A stretch of 64,000 bases of DNA from Alphaproteobacteria bacterium (GTDB taxonomy: Bacteria > Pseudomonadota > Alphaproteobacteria > Micropepsales > Micropepsaceae). Positions 6,336 through 12,251 of this stretch are shown here, piece after piece (the first letter of the stretch is position 1; the number at the start of each line of letters is the position of its first letter). The notes beneath the pieces are model-generated. The model was given only the letters and a program-made list of their open reading frames with translations. It did no database searches and had not been told where the DNA came from. The position numbers and the translations under genes are program-made. The stretch is from positions 1-64,000 of the forward strand of contig JAEUMK010000098.1 of NCBI GenBank assembly GCA_016792565.1. Reading direction: 5' to 3'.

Positions 6336-6617
6336 ATGACCGCCTATGCTCTCTTCATCCGCAATTCGATCACCGACGCCGAGGGGATGAAAACCTATGG
6401 CGCACTCGCGGCCAAGGCCCGCGGCACCTTCAAACCGCTCGCCGTTTATGGCCCCATCGAGACGCTGGAGGGCGAAACCTCGGAAGGCGTCGTCCTGCTG
6501 GAGTTCGAGGACATGGACGCTGCCAAGGCCTGGTATAACAGCCCCGCCTATCAGGAGGCGCTGCCGCACCGGAAGAGGAGCGCGGATTACCGCGTCCTCT
6601 TCTTCCAGGGCCTCTAA
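6336..6617 (+). CDS. DUF1330 domain protein
   Basis: A 93-residue protein matching the DUF1330 (dimeric alpha/beta barrel) pattern: YALFIRNSITD near the N-terminus, VYGPIETLEGE in the middle, VLLEFEDMDAAKAWYNSPAYQ and a C-terminal ADYRVLFFQG. Biochemical function is unknown for most of the family. The ATG at 6336 has a GAGGGAA 7 bases upstream. It sits between hprK and the EIIA gene and is not a usual member of that cluster, so a role in PTS signalling should not be assumed. Confidence 0.85.
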   Translation: MTAYALFIRNSITDAEGMKTYGALAAKARGTFKPLAVYGPIETLEGETSEGVVLLEFEDMDAAKAWYNSPAYQEALPHRKRSADYRVLFFQGL

Positions 6618-7139: not shown

Positions 7140-7412
7140 ATGACCAAGCTGGCGCAGGAGATGCTGATCGTCAATCAGCGCGGCCTGCATGCCCGCGCCT
7201 CGGCCAAGTTCGTCAAGCTCGCCTCCAGCTTCCAGAGCGCGATCCGCGTGACGCGCGGCGACGACACCGTGAACGGCACCTCGATCATGAGCCTGCTGAC
7301 GCTGGGCGCGGCGCCGGGATCGACCATCCTGGTGGAGGCCGACGGCCCCGACGCCCGCGAGGCGCTGGAGGCCATCAACAAGATGATCTGCGCCAAGTTC
7401 GACGAGGAATAG
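7140..7412 (+). CDS. ptsH: Phosphocarrier protein HPr
   Basis: A 90-residue HPr with active-site H17 in RGLHARASA, phosphorylated by EI, and a serine-site region NGTSIMSLLTLGA whose S48 corresponds to the HprK target Ser46 of classical HPr. Both sites being intact fits the HPr kinase gene upstream. EI (ptsP/ptsI) is elsewhere. In related genomes ahcY follows directly; here four other genes intervene. Confidence 0.96.
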   Translation: MTKLAQEMLIVNQRGLHARASAKFVKLASSFQSAIRVTRGDDTVNGTSIMSLLTLGAAPGSTILVEADGPDAREALEAINKMICAKFDEE

Positions 7413-7479: not shown

Positions 7480-8253
7480 ATGGAGAACAAAGACGATATC
7501 GTCCGCAACTGGCTGCCGCGCTACACGGGGCTGGAGCTGGGCGAGTTCGGGCAGTACATCCTGCTCACCAATTTCGACAACTACGTCCAGAAATTCGCCG
7601 ACTGGCACGACGTCGAGGTCAAGGGCCTCGACCGCGCGATGCATTCGGCGAGCGCCGACGGCATCACCATCATCAATTTCTCGATGGGCAGTCCGATGGC
7701 GGCGACGGTCATGGACCTTCTGACCGCGGTCATGCCCAAGGCGGTGCTGTTCCTGGGCAAGTGCGGCGGACTGAAGAAGAAGAACCAGCTCGGCGATTTC
7801 GTCCTGCCGATCGCCGCGATCCGCGGCGAGGGCACGTCGAACGACTATTTCCCGCCCGAGGTGCCGGCGCTGCCGGCCTTCACCTTGCAGCGCGCGATCT
7901 CGTCCACCATCCGCGACCTCGGGCACGATTACTGGACCGGCACGGTCTATACGACCAACCGCCGCGTCTGGGAGCACGACCAGGCCTTCAAGGACTATCT
8001 GCGCCGCATCCGCGCGATGGCGATCGACATGGAGACCGCGACGCTGTTCAGCGTCGGCTTCGCCAACCGCATCCCGACCGGGGCGCTGCTGCTGGTCAGC
8101 GACCAGCCGATGATCCCGCAGGGCGTGAAGACCAGCGAGAGCGACCGCAAGGTCTCGGGCCAGTATGTCGAGCCGCATATCCGCATCGGCATCGAAGCGC
8201 TGAAGGAAATCCAGAACGACGGCCGCTCGGTCCGTCACCTCAGATGGGAATAG
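7480..8253 (+). CDS. AMP nucleosidase, short form
   Basis: Hydrolyses AMP to adenine and ribose 5-phosphate. The protein is 257 residues, about half the E. coli Amn length, and lacks the extra Amn N-terminal domain. It has the nucleoside-phosphorylase fold: FLGKCGGLKKKNQLGDF, IRGEGTSNDYFPPEVPALP, a TGTVYTTNRRVWE stretch and MAIDMETATLF with the purine-site glutamate. From memory it is strikingly like AMP nucleosidases of Bacteroidota. No strong Shine-Dalgarno precedes the ATG. It interrupts the usual ptsH-ahcY adjacency, and with ahcY next in the cluster it may join adenine/adenosine salvage. Confidence 0.9.
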   Translation: MENKDDIVRNWLPRYTGLELGEFGQYILLTNFDNYVQKFADWHDVEVKGLDRAMHSASADGITIINFSMGSPMAATVMDLLTAVMPKAVLFLGKCGGLKKKNQLGDFVLPIAAIRGEGTSNDYFPPEVPALPAFTLQRAISSTIRDLGHDYWTGTVYTTNRRVWEHDQAFKDYLRRIRAMAIDMETATLFSVGFANRIPTGALLLVSDQPMIPQGVKTSESDRKVSGQYVEPHIRIGIEALKEIQNDGRSVRHLRWE

Positions 8254-8263
8254 GGAGAGCGGC

Positions 8264-9187
8264 ATGATCAGGAATCTGGCGCGGCGCGCCGCGGGGCTGG
8301 CGGCCGGACTGATGCTGCTGGCCGGCGCGGCGGCCGCCGACAGCGCGACCTCCGCCTTCGCGGCGCTGAGCGCCCAGCGCGAACCGGCGATCTGGACCAT
8401 CGACAAGCCGAACGGCACGACGATCACGCTGTTCGGGTCGGTCCACCTGCTGCCGGACGGCGACGGCTGGCGGACCAAGGCGCTGGCCCGCGCCTACGAC
8501 AAGGCCGACGTCATCGTGCTGGAGACCGACCTCGCGACGATGCAGGACCCGGCGCTGCAGGCCTATCTGGCCAAGCACGCGCTGAACCCGCCCGGCGTCA
8601 CGCTGTCGACGCTGCTGACGCCGGAGCAGAAGGACACCGTGTCGAAGGGCGCGGCGGCGGCCGGACTGAGCCTGGCGGCGATGGAAGGCTTCCGGCCGTG
8701 GTTCGCGGCGCTGCAGCTGTCGGTCGCCTATGCGGTGAGCCAGGGGTTCTCGCCCGAGGCAGGCGTCGACAAGCGCATCGAGAGCGACGGCAAGGCGGAC
8801 GGCAAGGCGTTCGACTATTTCGAAAAGGCGCGCGAGCAGCTCGATCTCTTCATCGAGCTGGACGAGGAGGCGCAGATCGACTTCCTGGTGCTGGGCGCCG
8901 AGGAATTGCTCGAGCGGCCCGACGAACTCAAGACGCTGATCGACGCCTGGCAGCGCGGCGACGTGGCGGGCATCGACGAAATGATGAATCGCGGCCTCGC
9001 CGACGCGCCCGAAGTGTCGAAGGCCCTGCTCGCCGACCGCAATGCGCGCTGGGCGCAGAAGATCCAGGATTTCTACATGAAGGACCGCAATTCCTACCTG
9101 ATCGTGGTGGGGGCGGGGCATCTGGCGGGCGAGGCGAGCGTGCAGGCGATGCTGCGCGAGGCCGGGATCGAGGTCGAGGGGCCGTGA
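8264..9187 (+). CDS. TraB/GumN family secreted protein (putative metalloprotease)
   Basis: A 307-residue protein with a signal peptide (basic start, hydrophobic LAAGLMLLAGAAAA, probable cleavage near residue 25). The mature part shows the TraB/GumN (TIKI-like) pattern: LFGSVHLLPDG with the first conserved glycine and histidine at 58-61, VIVLETDL with a conserved glutamate, a central GVDKRIE and a C-terminal VVGAGHLAGE. Distant eukaryotic relatives (Tiki) are metalloproteases; bacterial substrates are unknown. It starts 10 bases after the AMP nucleosidase stop and 13 bases precede the amidoligase gene, so the three are probably cotranscribed. Confidence 0.85.
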   Translation: MIRNLARRAAGLAAGLMLLAGAAAADSATSAFAALSAQREPAIWTIDKPNGTTITLFGSVHLLPDGDGWRTKALARAYDKADVIVLETDLATMQDPALQAYLAKHALNPPGVTLSTLLTPEQKDTVSKGAAAAGLSLAAMEGFRPWFAALQLSVAYAVSQGFSPEAGVDKRIESDGKADGKAFDYFEKAREQLDLFIELDEEAQIDFLVLGAEELLERPDELKTLIDAWQRGDVAGIDEMMNRGLADAPEVSKALLADRNARWAQKIQDFYMKDRNSYLIVVGAGHLAGEASVQAMLREAGIEVEGP

Positions 9188-9200
9188 GCCGGCGCCGGCG

Positions 9201-10298
9201 ATGACGCCACGCTGGAAAATGGGTTTCGAGATCGAGCTGATGGCGCCGCCCGGGCGCTCGCGGCTGGAGCTTGCCGAGCGCGTGGCGCGGCGCGGCGGCG
9301 GCGCCGTGCGGCGCTTCTTCCATCCGCAGTCCGAGCCGAGCGCGGTCAAGGGCCTGGCGACCTTCGAGAACCTGACGCCCGGCTTCGAGGCGCTGGACGC
9401 CGGCGGGCAGCCGCTCGGGCGCTTCGTCGACGACGTGACGCTGCAGGAGGGCCTGACGAAATCGGCGGCGCCCAGGCCGGGCTGGTACCGGGTGGTCGCC
9501 GACGACGCGCGGCTGCTGCGCCTCGTCATGCGCCACTGCGACGCCGAGGCGCCGCTGGCCGAAACGATGGCGAAGCTGGCCGGGCTGTTCGGGACGGCGA
9601 TCGAGCCACACGCCTCCGGCATGGTGCGGGTGAGCGACGACCGCGGCGTCTCGGTCGCCATCGGCGCGCCGCTGCCCGGCGAGCGCGAGCGGCCCTGCGA
9701 GATCGTCACGCCGCCGCTGGAGGCGGATCACGAGGCGGCGCTGGAGAGCCTGCTGGGCGAGGCGCGCGGGCTCGGCTTCGCGGCGCCGGCCGAGGGCGCG
9801 ACGCACATCCATTTCGACGCCGCCAGGCTGACCTCCGCGGCGGCGATCGCCAATCTCGTCAACGCACTGGGCCTTCACGGCGCGGCGCTGAAGCGCCTGG
9901 TGAAGACCAACCCGCGCTGCACGCGCCTCGGCCATTGGCCGGAGGGGCTGAGCGCGCTGGTCAATGCGCCGCATTTCGCGGCGCTGCCCTGGGAGAAGGC
10001 GCGCGAGGGGCTGGCGAGCGTGGGGCTGAAGAAATTCTGCGACTTCAACCTGCTGAACATCGCGGCGGCGAGCCCGTCGAAACACACCTTCGAAGTCCGC
10101 ATCCTGCCGGTCTATCTGGAGGCGCGGCCGGCGATCGCGGCGGCGCTGCTGTTCGAGGCGATCCTGGAATGGTGCGTCCGGCCGGGCCTGCGCGCCGCGC
10201 CGGAGCGGCTGGACGCCTGGATCGACGAACTCGATCTGCCGGACGAGATCCGGGCGGGCTGGCGGGCCGGGGCTATCGCGCCGGACGGCAGTGCGTGA
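9201..10298 (+). CDS. Putative amidoligase (COOH-NH2 ligase family)
   Basis: A 365-residue protein resembling amidoligase_2-type ATP-grasp/glutamine-synthetase-fold enzymes that form amide bonds between carboxylates and amines. Visible signatures are MGFEIEL (7-13) with two acidic residues for metal/ATP, CEIVTPPLEAD (166-176), THIHFDAA (201-208) and KHTFEVRILP (294-303). There is no signal peptide, so it is cytoplasmic. Family members act in peptide tagging, wall or antibiotic modification; the substrate here is unknown. It lies directly after a secreted TraB/GumN protein. The fold assignment rests on motif recognition and is not certain. Confidence 0.72.
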   Translation: MTPRWKMGFEIELMAPPGRSRLELAERVARRGGGAVRRFFHPQSEPSAVKGLATFENLTPGFEALDAGGQPLGRFVDDVTLQEGLTKSAAPRPGWYRVVADDARLLRLVMRHCDAEAPLAETMAKLAGLFGTAIEPHASGMVRVSDDRGVSVAIGAPLPGERERPCEIVTPPLEADHEAALESLLGEARGLGFAAPAEGATHIHFDAARLTSAAAIANLVNALGLHGAALKRLVKTNPRCTRLGHWPEGLSALVNAPHFAALPWEKAREGLASVGLKKFCDFNLLNIAAASPSKHTFEVRILPVYLEARPAIAAALLFEAILEWCVRPGLRAAPERLDAWIDELDLPDEIRAGWRAGAIAPDGSA

Positions 10299-10337
10299 CA
10301 GAGTGGGGCAACCGACTCGACCCCGGAAGGACACCGC

Positions 10338-10706
10338 ATGACATCCACCACGCCGCGCACCCGCATGCTCGGCCGCGTCGCCGCCGCCTTCCTGGCGACC
10401 AGCGCCATGACCGGCGCCTCGCTCAGCCTCGTGCAGGCCGCCTACGCCTATAGCCAGAGCCAGATGGAGATGGCGTTCTGGGACGCCGGCTATTCCTACT
10501 GCGACGCCGAGAAGCTCGGCCAGTACTGGCAGATGGCGACCTATGACGCGAAGCTGAATGCAGGCCTCAAGATCCTGGAAGGCGGACAGGTCTATCTCGA
10601 CCAGGCGATCCAGATCGCCATGCAGTCCTATGGCTGCCCCAACGGCTTCAATTTCGACGATTCCACCAGCCTCGCGGCGCTGTGGAGCGCACCGGGACGC
10701 TCGTGA
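10338..10706 (+). CDS. Small secreted protein of unknown function
   Basis: A 122-residue protein with an N-terminal signal peptide (hydrophobic AAAFLATSAMTGASLSL, probable cleavage after AAYA). The mature part is about 85 residues with two cysteines (YSYCDAEKLGQYWQ and SYGCPNGF) that could form a disulfide, and a conserved-looking DAKLNAGLKILEGG. I do not recognise a family with confidence, although similar YCDAK...YW proteins occur in sphingomonads from memory. A GGAAGGA 7 bases before the ATG supports the start. It is the last gene before the ahcY regulatory region. Confidence 0.75.
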   Translation: MTSTTPRTRMLGRVAAAFLATSAMTGASLSLVQAAYAYSQSQMEMAFWDAGYSYCDAEKLGQYWQMATYDAKLNAGLKILEGGQVYLDQAIQIAMQSYGCPNGFNFDDSTSLAALWSAPGRS

Positions 10707-10847: not shown

Positions 10848-12251
10848 ATGTCCGCCCACGACTATCACGTCGCCGATATCAAGCTGGCCGCCTTCGGCCG
10901 CAAGGAAATCGACCTGGCCGAAACGGAAATGCCCGGCCTGATGGCGACGCGCGAAGAGTTCGGCCCCAAGCAGCCGCTGAAGGGCGCGCGCATCGCCGGC
11001 TCGCTGCACATGACGATCCAGCCCGCGGTGCTGATCGAGACGCTGAAGCACCTGGGCGCCGACGTGCGCTGGGTGTCGTGCAACATCTACTCGACCCAGG
11101 ACCACGCCGCCGCCGCGATCGCTGCGGGCGGCACGCCGGTCTATGCCTATAAGGGCGAGACGCTGACCGAGTACTGGGACTACACCGCCAAGCTGTTCGA
11201 CTGGCACGGCGGCGGCATGCCCAACATGATCCTCGACGACGGCGGCGACGCGACGATGTTCGTGCACCTGGGCCTGCGCGCCGAGCAGGGCGACACCGCC
11301 TTCCTCGACACGCCGCATTCGGAGGAGGAGGAGATCTTCTTCGCCCTGCTGAAGAAGACCCTCGCCAAGAAGCCCAAGGGCTGGTTCGCCCAGCTCGCGA
11401 CCTCGATCCGCGGCGTCTCGGAAGAGACGACGACCGGCGTCAACCGGCTCTATCAGCTGGCCGCCCACAACAAGCTGCTGTTCCCGGCGATCAACGTCAA
11501 CGACAGCGTGACCAAGTCGAAGTTCGACAATCTCTATGGCTGCCGCGAGAGCCTGGTCGACGCCATCCGCCGCGGCACCGACGTGATGATGTCGGGCAAG
11601 ACGGCGTTCGTCGCGGGCTTCGGCGACGTCGGCAAGGGCTCGGCCGCCTCGCTGCGCCAGGCCGGCTGCCGCGTGCTGGTCTCGGAAGTCGATCCGATCT
11701 GCGCCCTGCAGGCGGCGATGGAAGGCTACGAGGTCGTCACGCTGGAGGACGCCTGCCCGCGCGCCGACATCTTCGTCACCGCAACCGGCAACAAGAACAT
11801 CATCGGCATCGACCACATGCGGGCCATGAAGGACCGCGCCATCGTCTGCAATATCGGGCACTTCGACAACGAGATCGACGTCGCGGGCCTGAAGAACTTC
11901 AAGTGGAACAACATCAAGCCGCAGGTCGACGAGATTGAGCTGGCCTCGGGCAAGCGCATCATCCTCCTGTCGGAGGGGCGGCTCGTGAATCTCGGCAACG
12001 CGATGGGGCACCCCAGCTTCGTCATGTCGGCCTCGTTCACCAACCAGACGATCGCCCAGATCGAGCTGTGGACCAACCCCGAGAAGTACGCCAAGCAGGT
12101 CTACACGCTGCCCAAGCATCTCGACGAGAAGGTGGCGCGCCTGCACCTGGAGAAGATCGGCGTGAAGCTGACCAAGCTGAGCCCCGAGCAGGCCGACTAT
12201 ATCGGCGTGAAGGTCGACGGCCCGTTCAAGGCGGATCACTACCGCTACTGA
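10848..12251 (+). CDS. ahcY: S-adenosylhomocysteinase
   Basis: Cytosolic NAD-dependent enzyme splitting S-adenosylhomocysteine into adenosine and homocysteine, removing the inhibitor made by methyltransferases. It is 467 residues, the usual bacterial length. It has [15 protein letters not shown], the substrate region [12 protein letters not shown], the NAD-binding GFGDVGKG (about 257-264), HFDNEID, and the invariant C-terminal KADHYRY. An AT-rich palindrome lies upstream and a strong hairpin terminator downstream, so it is probably transcribed on its own. In related genomes it links the ptsH block to the divL block, as here. Confidence 0.98.

What the first reader, a model, noticed from the sequence alone, without database searches (positions are those of the whole stretch)
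8264..10706. Secreted TraB/GumN protein + putative amidoligase + small disulfide protein in one transcription unit
Three closely spaced genes encode a secreted TIKI-like putative metalloprotease, a cytosolic COOH-NH2 ligase-type protein with FEIEL, CEIVTPP, THIHFD and FEVRILP motifs, and a small secreted two-cysteine protein. They interrupt the otherwise conserved ptsH-ahcY linkage. A ligase making amide bonds beside a protease suggests making and trimming of a peptide or wall modification. The function is not described to my knowledge.
Basis: partly seen in the sequence, partly recalled or inferred. Interest (0 to 1): 0.65.

Follow-up and report, generated by a model that had tools for sequence, protein, structure and literature searches.

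The report
Ligase paired with secreted repeat protein
A rare two-gene module pairs an enzyme of a bond-forming family with an undescribed exported repeat protein; the pair recurs together in several bacterial phyla, which suggests, but does not yet show, that the enzyme chemically modifies its partner before export.

Summary
The three genes are real. The finding's main link (TraB/GumN with the ligase) is incidental; the important partner is the small 'two-cysteine' protein. The ligase (9201-10298) belongs to Pfam Amidoligase_2 and its confident model has the glutamine-synthetase / YbdK / PafA fold with the superfamily motifs intact. The small protein (10338-10706) is a short member of an undescribed exported helical repeat family (consensus Y-x-Y-x-D-A-x-x-L-A-x-x-W-G...A-K...G) without a Pfam or NCBIfam model. 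In 81 repeat units Asp is kept in 80 and Lys in 78 of the 79 that reach it. Repeat and ligase genes are neighbours in 21 of 23 genomes found through the ligase (four named phyla). In 161 cyanobacterial genomes the same 8 hold both full ligase and repeat gene; the only other ligase match there is a relic. The one ligase-bearing genome without a repeat gene has a ligase broken by a stop. In the window's genus the pair sits at two different places as a unit, and the amn-TraB-ahcY block exists without it. Best reading: the cytosolic ligase modifies the repeat protein before export, perhaps by an Asp-Lys isopeptide bond. Substrate and chemistry are inferred, not shown.

The parts
9201..10298 (+). 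GS-fold amidoligase (Amidoligase_2, PF12224), cytosolic by sequence; motifs GFEIE (res. 8-12), HIH (202-204), EVR (298-300)
10338..10706 (+). secreted helical repeat protein, short member (one full and one truncated repeat) of the family paired with the ligase
10473..10589 (+). full repeat unit 1 of the partner protein
   Evidence: profile match E 4.9e-17 (converted from L001 coordinates)
10644..10688 (+). truncated repeat unit 2 (GFNFDDSTSLAALWS), lacking the Lys half
10503..10505 (+). codon of Asp56, invariant in the family alignment; candidate carboxyl donor (inference)
10551..10553 (+). codon of Lys72, invariant in the family alignment; candidate amine (inference)
8264..9187 (+). TraB/GumN-family secreted protein: neighbour, not part of the module
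7480..8253 (+). AMP nucleosidase: neighbour, not part of the module
10848..12251 (+). ahcY (adenosylhomocysteinase, named from the finding and recall): downstream flank of the insertion

Best explanation
A two-gene protein-modification module. The repeat protein is made with a Sec-type signal peptide. Before export the cytosolic GS-fold ligase uses ATP to activate a carboxylate (acyl phosphate, as in glutamine synthetase and PafA) and joins it to an amine on the repeat protein. The favoured site is the invariant Asp (YxYxDA) and the invariant Lys (AK, 16-17 residues later) of the same or the next repeat, giving an isopeptide-stapled helical repeat protein that is then exported. Shown by computation: ligase fold and superfamily motifs, repeat family, gene adjacency, co-occurrence. 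Inferred: that the repeat protein is the substrate, the Asp-Lys chemistry, pre-export timing, and the extracellular role. The confidence below is for 'the ligase modifies the repeat protein'; for the Asp-Lys staple I give 0.25.
For: Adjacency: 21 of 24 ligase loci L002-L025 hold a repeat gene within about 1 kb. By genome: 21 of 23 adjacent (including G497, where the repeat gene abuts a ligase N-terminus at a contig end, L054), one unlinked (G478), one without repeats (G493). Co-occurrence: own order, the same 3 of 96 for both genes; class sample, the same 1 of 385; cyanobacterial phylum sample, repeat in 4 of 166, full ligase in the same 4 plus one relic; cyanobacterial order sample, 8 of 161, same 8 plus the same relic. 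Leaving out the two query genomes of that last sample, Fisher p 3.4e-10 (ignores kinship). Loss: the ligase of G493, without a repeat gene, has an in-frame stop, and G540 keeps a ~50-residue relic. Gene order flips between clades (repeat downstream in the alphaproteobacterial group with the window, upstream elsewhere) while adjacency stays. In the window's genus the pair lies at two sites (G000/G011 versus G013). Repeats: Asp 80 of 81, Lys 78 of 79, Trp 78 of 81, spacing 16 or 17 in 76 of 77 units. Fold relatives PafA and Dop act on proteins. Bufferins are a precedent for Sec-exported proteins modified before export (PMC12452194, passages).
Against: No biochemistry for this subfamily was found. 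Trp, Tyr and Gly are kept almost as well as Asp and Lys, so the conservation could be structural. One repeat protein (L055, unlinked from its ligase) has lost Lys in one unit and Asp in the next. Repeat proteins also occur away from the ligase (second copy in the window's own genome at G000:C108:17274-18074; also in G011, G478 and one of the two in G486), so linkage is not absolute. The window's own protein has only one complete repeat. Model coordinates could not be read, so the Asp-Lys distance and any complex were not tested. The repeat model is only fair (pTM 0.54). One repeat ORF (L054) shows no signal-like stretch. The query alignments were built from the pairs.
Confidence: 0.55

Rival explanations
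1. The ligase makes a small molecule (an amide or gamma-glutamyl compound) in the cytosol, and the exported repeat protein binds, carries or senses it outside.
For: Most characterised relatives (GS, GCS, YbdK) act on small molecules; Iyer 2008 (PMC2588565, passages) predicted metabolite or peptide synthesis for other uncharacterised families of the superfamily. Some cyanobacterial copies carry extra C-terminal parts, in one of 20 scanned (L006 by its sequence) a ricin-type lectin domain, which fits a binding protein.
Against: No other biosynthetic, transport or peptidase family recurs: of 92 neighbour proteins from 17 loci no Pfam family matched more than 2. A ligase for a small molecule would not need the repeat gene always in the genome.
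Confidence: 0.2
2. The ligase modifies the repeat protein without a cross-link: it amidates Asp (ammonia, as in glutamine synthetase) or adds an amino acid or other amine to Asp, or an acid to Lys, once per repeat. This is a sub-case of the best explanation.
For: Glutamine synthetase and PafA show that both ammonia and protein amines are used in this fold (PMC7947786, passages); Asp is in a tandem, once-per-repeat position.
Against: It leaves the equally invariant Lys (or Asp) unexplained except as a structural residue.
Confidence: 0.25
3. The two genes serve one process but do not touch chemically; Asp and Lys are structural (helix cap, salt bridge), and the module travels together by horizontal transfer.
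For: Patchy distribution across phyla, rare within each sample; repeat conservation includes residues that look structural.
Against: No third gene travels with the pair; broken ligases go with missing repeat genes.
Confidence: 0.15
4. One reading: ligase and TraB/GumN protease make and trim a peptide or wall modification.
For: Close spacing in G000 and its congener G011/L002.
Against: TraB adjacency is limited to that pair of genomes among the loci searched; TraB is present with amn and ahcY in congeners lacking the ligase there.
Confidence: 0.03

Closest known systems
Pupylation (PafA ligase and Pup)
   Same: GS-fold carboxylate-amine ligase (PafA 4bjr Z 10.9) tied by genome neighbourhood to one small helical protein; shared motifs GhExE and [HD]x[NH].
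   Different: Partner is an exported tandem-repeat protein without Pup's C-terminal G[EQ]; no proteasome family recurs nearby; ligase has only distant structural similarity to PafA.
Amidoligase_2 families next to GATase or Aig2 genes (Iyer 2008, second new family; equating it with PF12224 is my inference)
   Same: GCS2-sized ligases of the same superfamily; Pfam PF12224 hit.
   Different: That paper reports GATase/Aig2 neighbours and no small conserved Pup-like ORFs; here a conserved small-protein partner is present and no GATase/Aig2 family recurs.
Graspetides (microviridin-like RiPPs)
   Same: Enzyme-made side-chain amide or ester links, often in repeated cores (PMC8939145 seen only as search listing, abstract start and one reference-list passage; chemistry recalled).
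   Different: ATP-grasp enzymes and short leader-core peptides there; GS-fold enzyme and predicted folded exported repeats here.
Bufferins (MNIO-modified, Sec-exported RiPPs)
   Same: Precursor with a Sec signal peptide modified before export; precursor genes also found away from the enzyme (PMC12452194, passages).
   Different: Different enzyme, Cys chemistry and a partner protein.
YbdK / GCS2 (gamma-glutamyl-cysteine ligases)
   Same: Best structural match (1r8g Z 12.8, rmsd 3.5 over 212 residues).
   Different: 16% identity; no reason to assume a cysteine/glutamate substrate.

Membership tests
Carboxylate-amine ligase (GS-fold) superfamily | GS-type fold | tested here: met
   AlphaFold2 model pLDDT 93.1; YbdK, Dop, GS, GCL and PafA entries fill the 50 rows shown, Z 10.7-12.8
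Carboxylate-amine ligase (GS-fold) superfamily | GhExE on strand 1 and [HD]x[NH] on strand 4 (as stated in PMC2588565) | tested here: met
   GFEIE at 8-12 on predicted strand 7-14; HIH at 202-204 on strand 201-206
Carboxylate-amine ligase (GS-fold) superfamily | Ex[RK]x2D on strand 6 | tested here: inconclusive
   EVRILP at 298-303: ExR invariant in 24 rows, the final D is P
Amidoligase_2 (PF12224) | profile score above the gathering cut-off | tested here: met
   59.6 bits versus 22
Amidoligase_2 (PF12224) | ATP-dependent amide bond formation | not testable with these tools
   needs an assay
Pupylation (Pup as partner) | partner protein ends in G[EQ] | tested here: not met
   window protein ends APGRS; none of the relatives printed ends in G[EQ]
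GATase/Aig2-linked amidoligase pathway | recurrent GATase or Aig2 neighbour | tested here: inconclusive
   no Pfam family matches more than 2 of 92 neighbour ORFs; single matches beyond the 25 rows shown were not visible
Graspetides | ATP-grasp ligase | tested here: not met
   the ligase is Amidoligase_2 with the GS fold
Bufferin-type RiPP | Sec signal peptide on the precursor | tested here: inconclusive
   hydrophobic N-terminal stretch in the distinct repeat ORFs except L054 and the 57-aa L021 fragment (heuristic); no signal-peptide predictor available
Bufferin-type RiPP | MNIO enzyme and DUF2063 partner | not tested
   no dedicated search; not among the families shown
   only in the window and its congener

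The most novel reading that the evidence does not exclude
A new class of genetically encoded protein stapling: a glutamine-synthetase-fold ligase installs one Asp-Lys isopeptide bond per helical repeat in an exported repeat protein, the GS-fold counterpart of the ATP-grasp graspetides, spread as a two-gene module over Pseudomonadota, Cyanobacteriota, Verrucomicrobiota and Spirochaetota. A clue for bonds between neighbouring repeats: the one protein that lost Lys in unit 1 also lost Asp in unit 2 (L055; a single case).
Probability: 0.25. Interest if true: 0.85.

Novelty: new variant of a known kind. Interest (0 to 1): 0.66.

Why it matters
A dedicated, gene-linked candidate substrate turns an orphan amidoligase subfamily into a testable enzyme-substrate pair. 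If the ligase does modify its repeat partner, it would be, next to pupylation, another GS-fold enzyme dedicated to a protein substrate, and a possible tool for covalently stapling helical repeat proteins. The repeat family itself has no Pfam or NCBIfam model.

Tried and rejected
TraB/GumN as partner: rejected. Phage or plasmid origin: a pattern scan of viral contigs gave no relative and the plasmid collection no match to one cyanobacterial ligase; the ligase has a weak PHROG amidoligase hit (1.5e-05). Defence system: no PADLOC match for the three proteins. Sequence match to solved structures: nothing credible for the ligase profile. Fold of the repeat protein: no Foldseek match at E 0.001 or below and best VIA-align Z 3.7 over 46 residues, which shows neither a known nor a new fold. 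Third partner gene: none recurs. Weak Pfam hits on repeat proteins (BMC in 3 of 20, others single) were taken as chance, except the ricin-type lectin domain.

Literature. Searches in the open-access library listed no paper that, from its title or abstract start, describes this pair; I read passages only of PMC12239564, PMC12096838, PMC4431377, PMC3541065, PMC8939145, PMC12419801, PMC13001092, PMC2588565, PMC7947786, PMC10945688 and PMC12452194. The key review of amidoligases (Iyer 2009, doi 10.1039/b917682a) is not held, so it could already mention this linkage; what I know of it is recalled.

Rows dropped or doubled: L016 and L017 are two contigs of one genome; G476 and G011 give identical coordinates and appear to be one genome, so one search's 24 of 25 is 23 of 24 distinct genomes. 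The cyanobacterial samples and 68/69 overlap. In Gammaproteobacteria only the repeat was searched (1 of 303, the query's own genome), not the ligase. The GTDB contig scan used short patterns from the window's protein, so distant relatives are under-sampled. The neighbour scan took up to three ORFs on each side of the ligase in 17 of the 24 loci.

Full report
What is there. The window holds, on the + strand, ptsH (7140-7412), an AMP nucleosidase gene (7480-8253), a TraB/GumN gene (8264-9187), an Amidoligase_2 gene (9201-10298), a small secreted-protein gene (10338-10706) and ahcY (10848-12251) (ptsH and ahcY named from the finding and recall).

The small protein is the partner. A scan of GTDB contigs with the ligase returned 24 loci from Pseudomonadota, Cyanobacteriota, Verrucomicrobiota and Spirochaetota, and one unnamed bacterium. 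Clustering all ORFs of these loci gave one family besides the ligase that is shared widely across them: relatives of the window's small protein (two further clusters hold minus-strand reading frames opposite these genes and were set aside as shadows). They are next to the ligase in 21 of the 24 loci. Of the three others, L024 is a contig fragment whose genome (G497) has the repeat gene abutting a ligase N-terminus at another contig end (L054); L004's genome (G478) has it elsewhere; L020's genome (G493) has none, and its ligase reading frame is interrupted by a stop.

The repeat family. The proteins carry one to four copies of a unit of about 40 residues, Y-x-Y-x-D-A-x-x-L-A-x-x-W-G ... A-K ... 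G. In 81 units found by profile in 32 distinct ORFs (one of them a 57-residue ORF behind a stop in L021), Asp is present in 80, Trp in 78, and Lys in 78 of the 79 units that reach that position; the Asp-Lys spacing is 16 in 46 units, 17 in 30 and 21 in one. Both Asp/Lys exceptions are in one protein, L055, unlinked from its ligase. The profile was seeded with pattern-selected units, but the alignments A2 and A3, made without that selection, also show Asp and Lys of one unit invariant in 20 of 20 sequences. No Pfam or NCBIfam model matches the family. Most members start with a signal-peptide-like stretch (heuristic). The predicted structure of L018's two-repeat protein is all-helical (pLDDT 82.3, pTM 0.54) without a convincing match in the PDB. 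The window's member has one full and one truncated repeat. The window's own genome has a second, four-repeat member on another contig (G000:C108:17274-18074).

Co-occurrence. In the window's order the ligase is in 3 of 96 genomes and the repeat in the same 3. In an even sample of the class both are in the same 1 of 385, the window's own genome. In the phylum of G488 (Cyanobacteriota) the repeat is in 4 of 166 and a full ligase in the same 4, with a ~50-residue relic in one more genome, G540. In the order of G488 the repeat is in 8 of 161 and a full ligase in the same 8, with the same relic; each of the nine repeat loci there lies beside a ligase, and G556 has two separate pairs. Leaving out the two genomes that were in the query, Fisher's exact test gives 3.4e-10, without correction for kinship. 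In Gammaproteobacteria the repeat was found only in the query's own genome (1 of 303); the ligase was not searched there.

The pair moves as a unit and TraB does not belong to it. In congeners G012 and G013 the amn-TraB-ahcY block stands without the pair (L077, L078; in L078 TraB and ahcY are about 150 bases apart), and in G014 amn-TraB is seen though ahcY is not within the stretch held (L079). G013 has the ligase-repeat pair on another contig. TraB itself is found in 28 of 41 relatives, ligase or not. In the loci examined the repeat gene is downstream of the ligase in the alphaproteobacterial clade of the window (window, L002, L003, L019, and congener L027, which was not in the tree) and upstream in the other clade; in L022 it is upstream on the opposite strand. 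Adjacency kept through such rearrangement argues for a functional tie.

The ligase. The model (pLDDT 93.1, pTM 0.89) aligns with YbdK (Z 12.8, rmsd 3.5, 212 residues), Dop (11.7), glutamine synthetase (11.6), plant glutamate-cysteine ligase (11.4) and PafA (10.9); plain Foldseek ranked YbdK and glutamine synthetase first but gave no E below 0.001. The superfamily motifs listed in PMC2588565 (passages) are met for strands 1 and 4 and partly for strand 6. These residues are intact in the window's copy.

How it most likely works. A cytosolic ATP-dependent carboxylate-amine ligase and an exported protein that so consistently come together are best read as enzyme and substrate. The once-per-repeat Asp and Lys suggest a carboxylate donor and an amine acceptor, hence an isopeptide staple; but Trp, Tyr and Gly are nearly as conserved, so this is a guess at 0.25. 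Modification before Sec export has a precedent in bufferins (PMC12452194, passages). The small-molecule and no-contact alternatives remain open at 0.2 and 0.15.

Novelty. [quoted passage not shown] here a small conserved ORF does. My literature searches showed no description of the pair, but Iyer 2009 could not be read. I file it as a new variant of a known kind: a known ligase superfamily with a new, apparently dedicated protein partner.

Noticed in passing
G000:C108:17274-18074 (L032:7275-8075): Second, four-repeat member of the repeat family in the window's own genome, unlinked to the ligase; a Sel1-like short ORF (named by eye) follows.
   Followed up: partly
L006:1255-2205, L097: Cyanobacterial repeat proteins with a C-terminal extension; one of 20 scanned, L006 by its sequence, has a ricin-type beta-trefoil lectin domain (PF14200, 4.5e-13); L097 has a similar sequence by eye.
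   Followed up: partly
L054:1198-1878: Three-repeat protein next to a ligase start at a contig end, with no signal-like hydrophobic stretch in the open frame.
   Followed up: no
G014:C186:15675-19410 and G013:C89:14534-18199: Several TraB/GumN-like matches in tandem upstream of the window's TraB orthologue in two congeners.
   Followed up: no
window about 6336-6617: Small ORF between the HPr kinase-like and EIIA-like genes that resembles a DUF1330 protein; name recalled, not searched.
   Followed up: no
L021:4083-4583: Leptospiraceae repeat array in which two units and a third unit lie in one frame separated by a stop codon.
   Followed up: no
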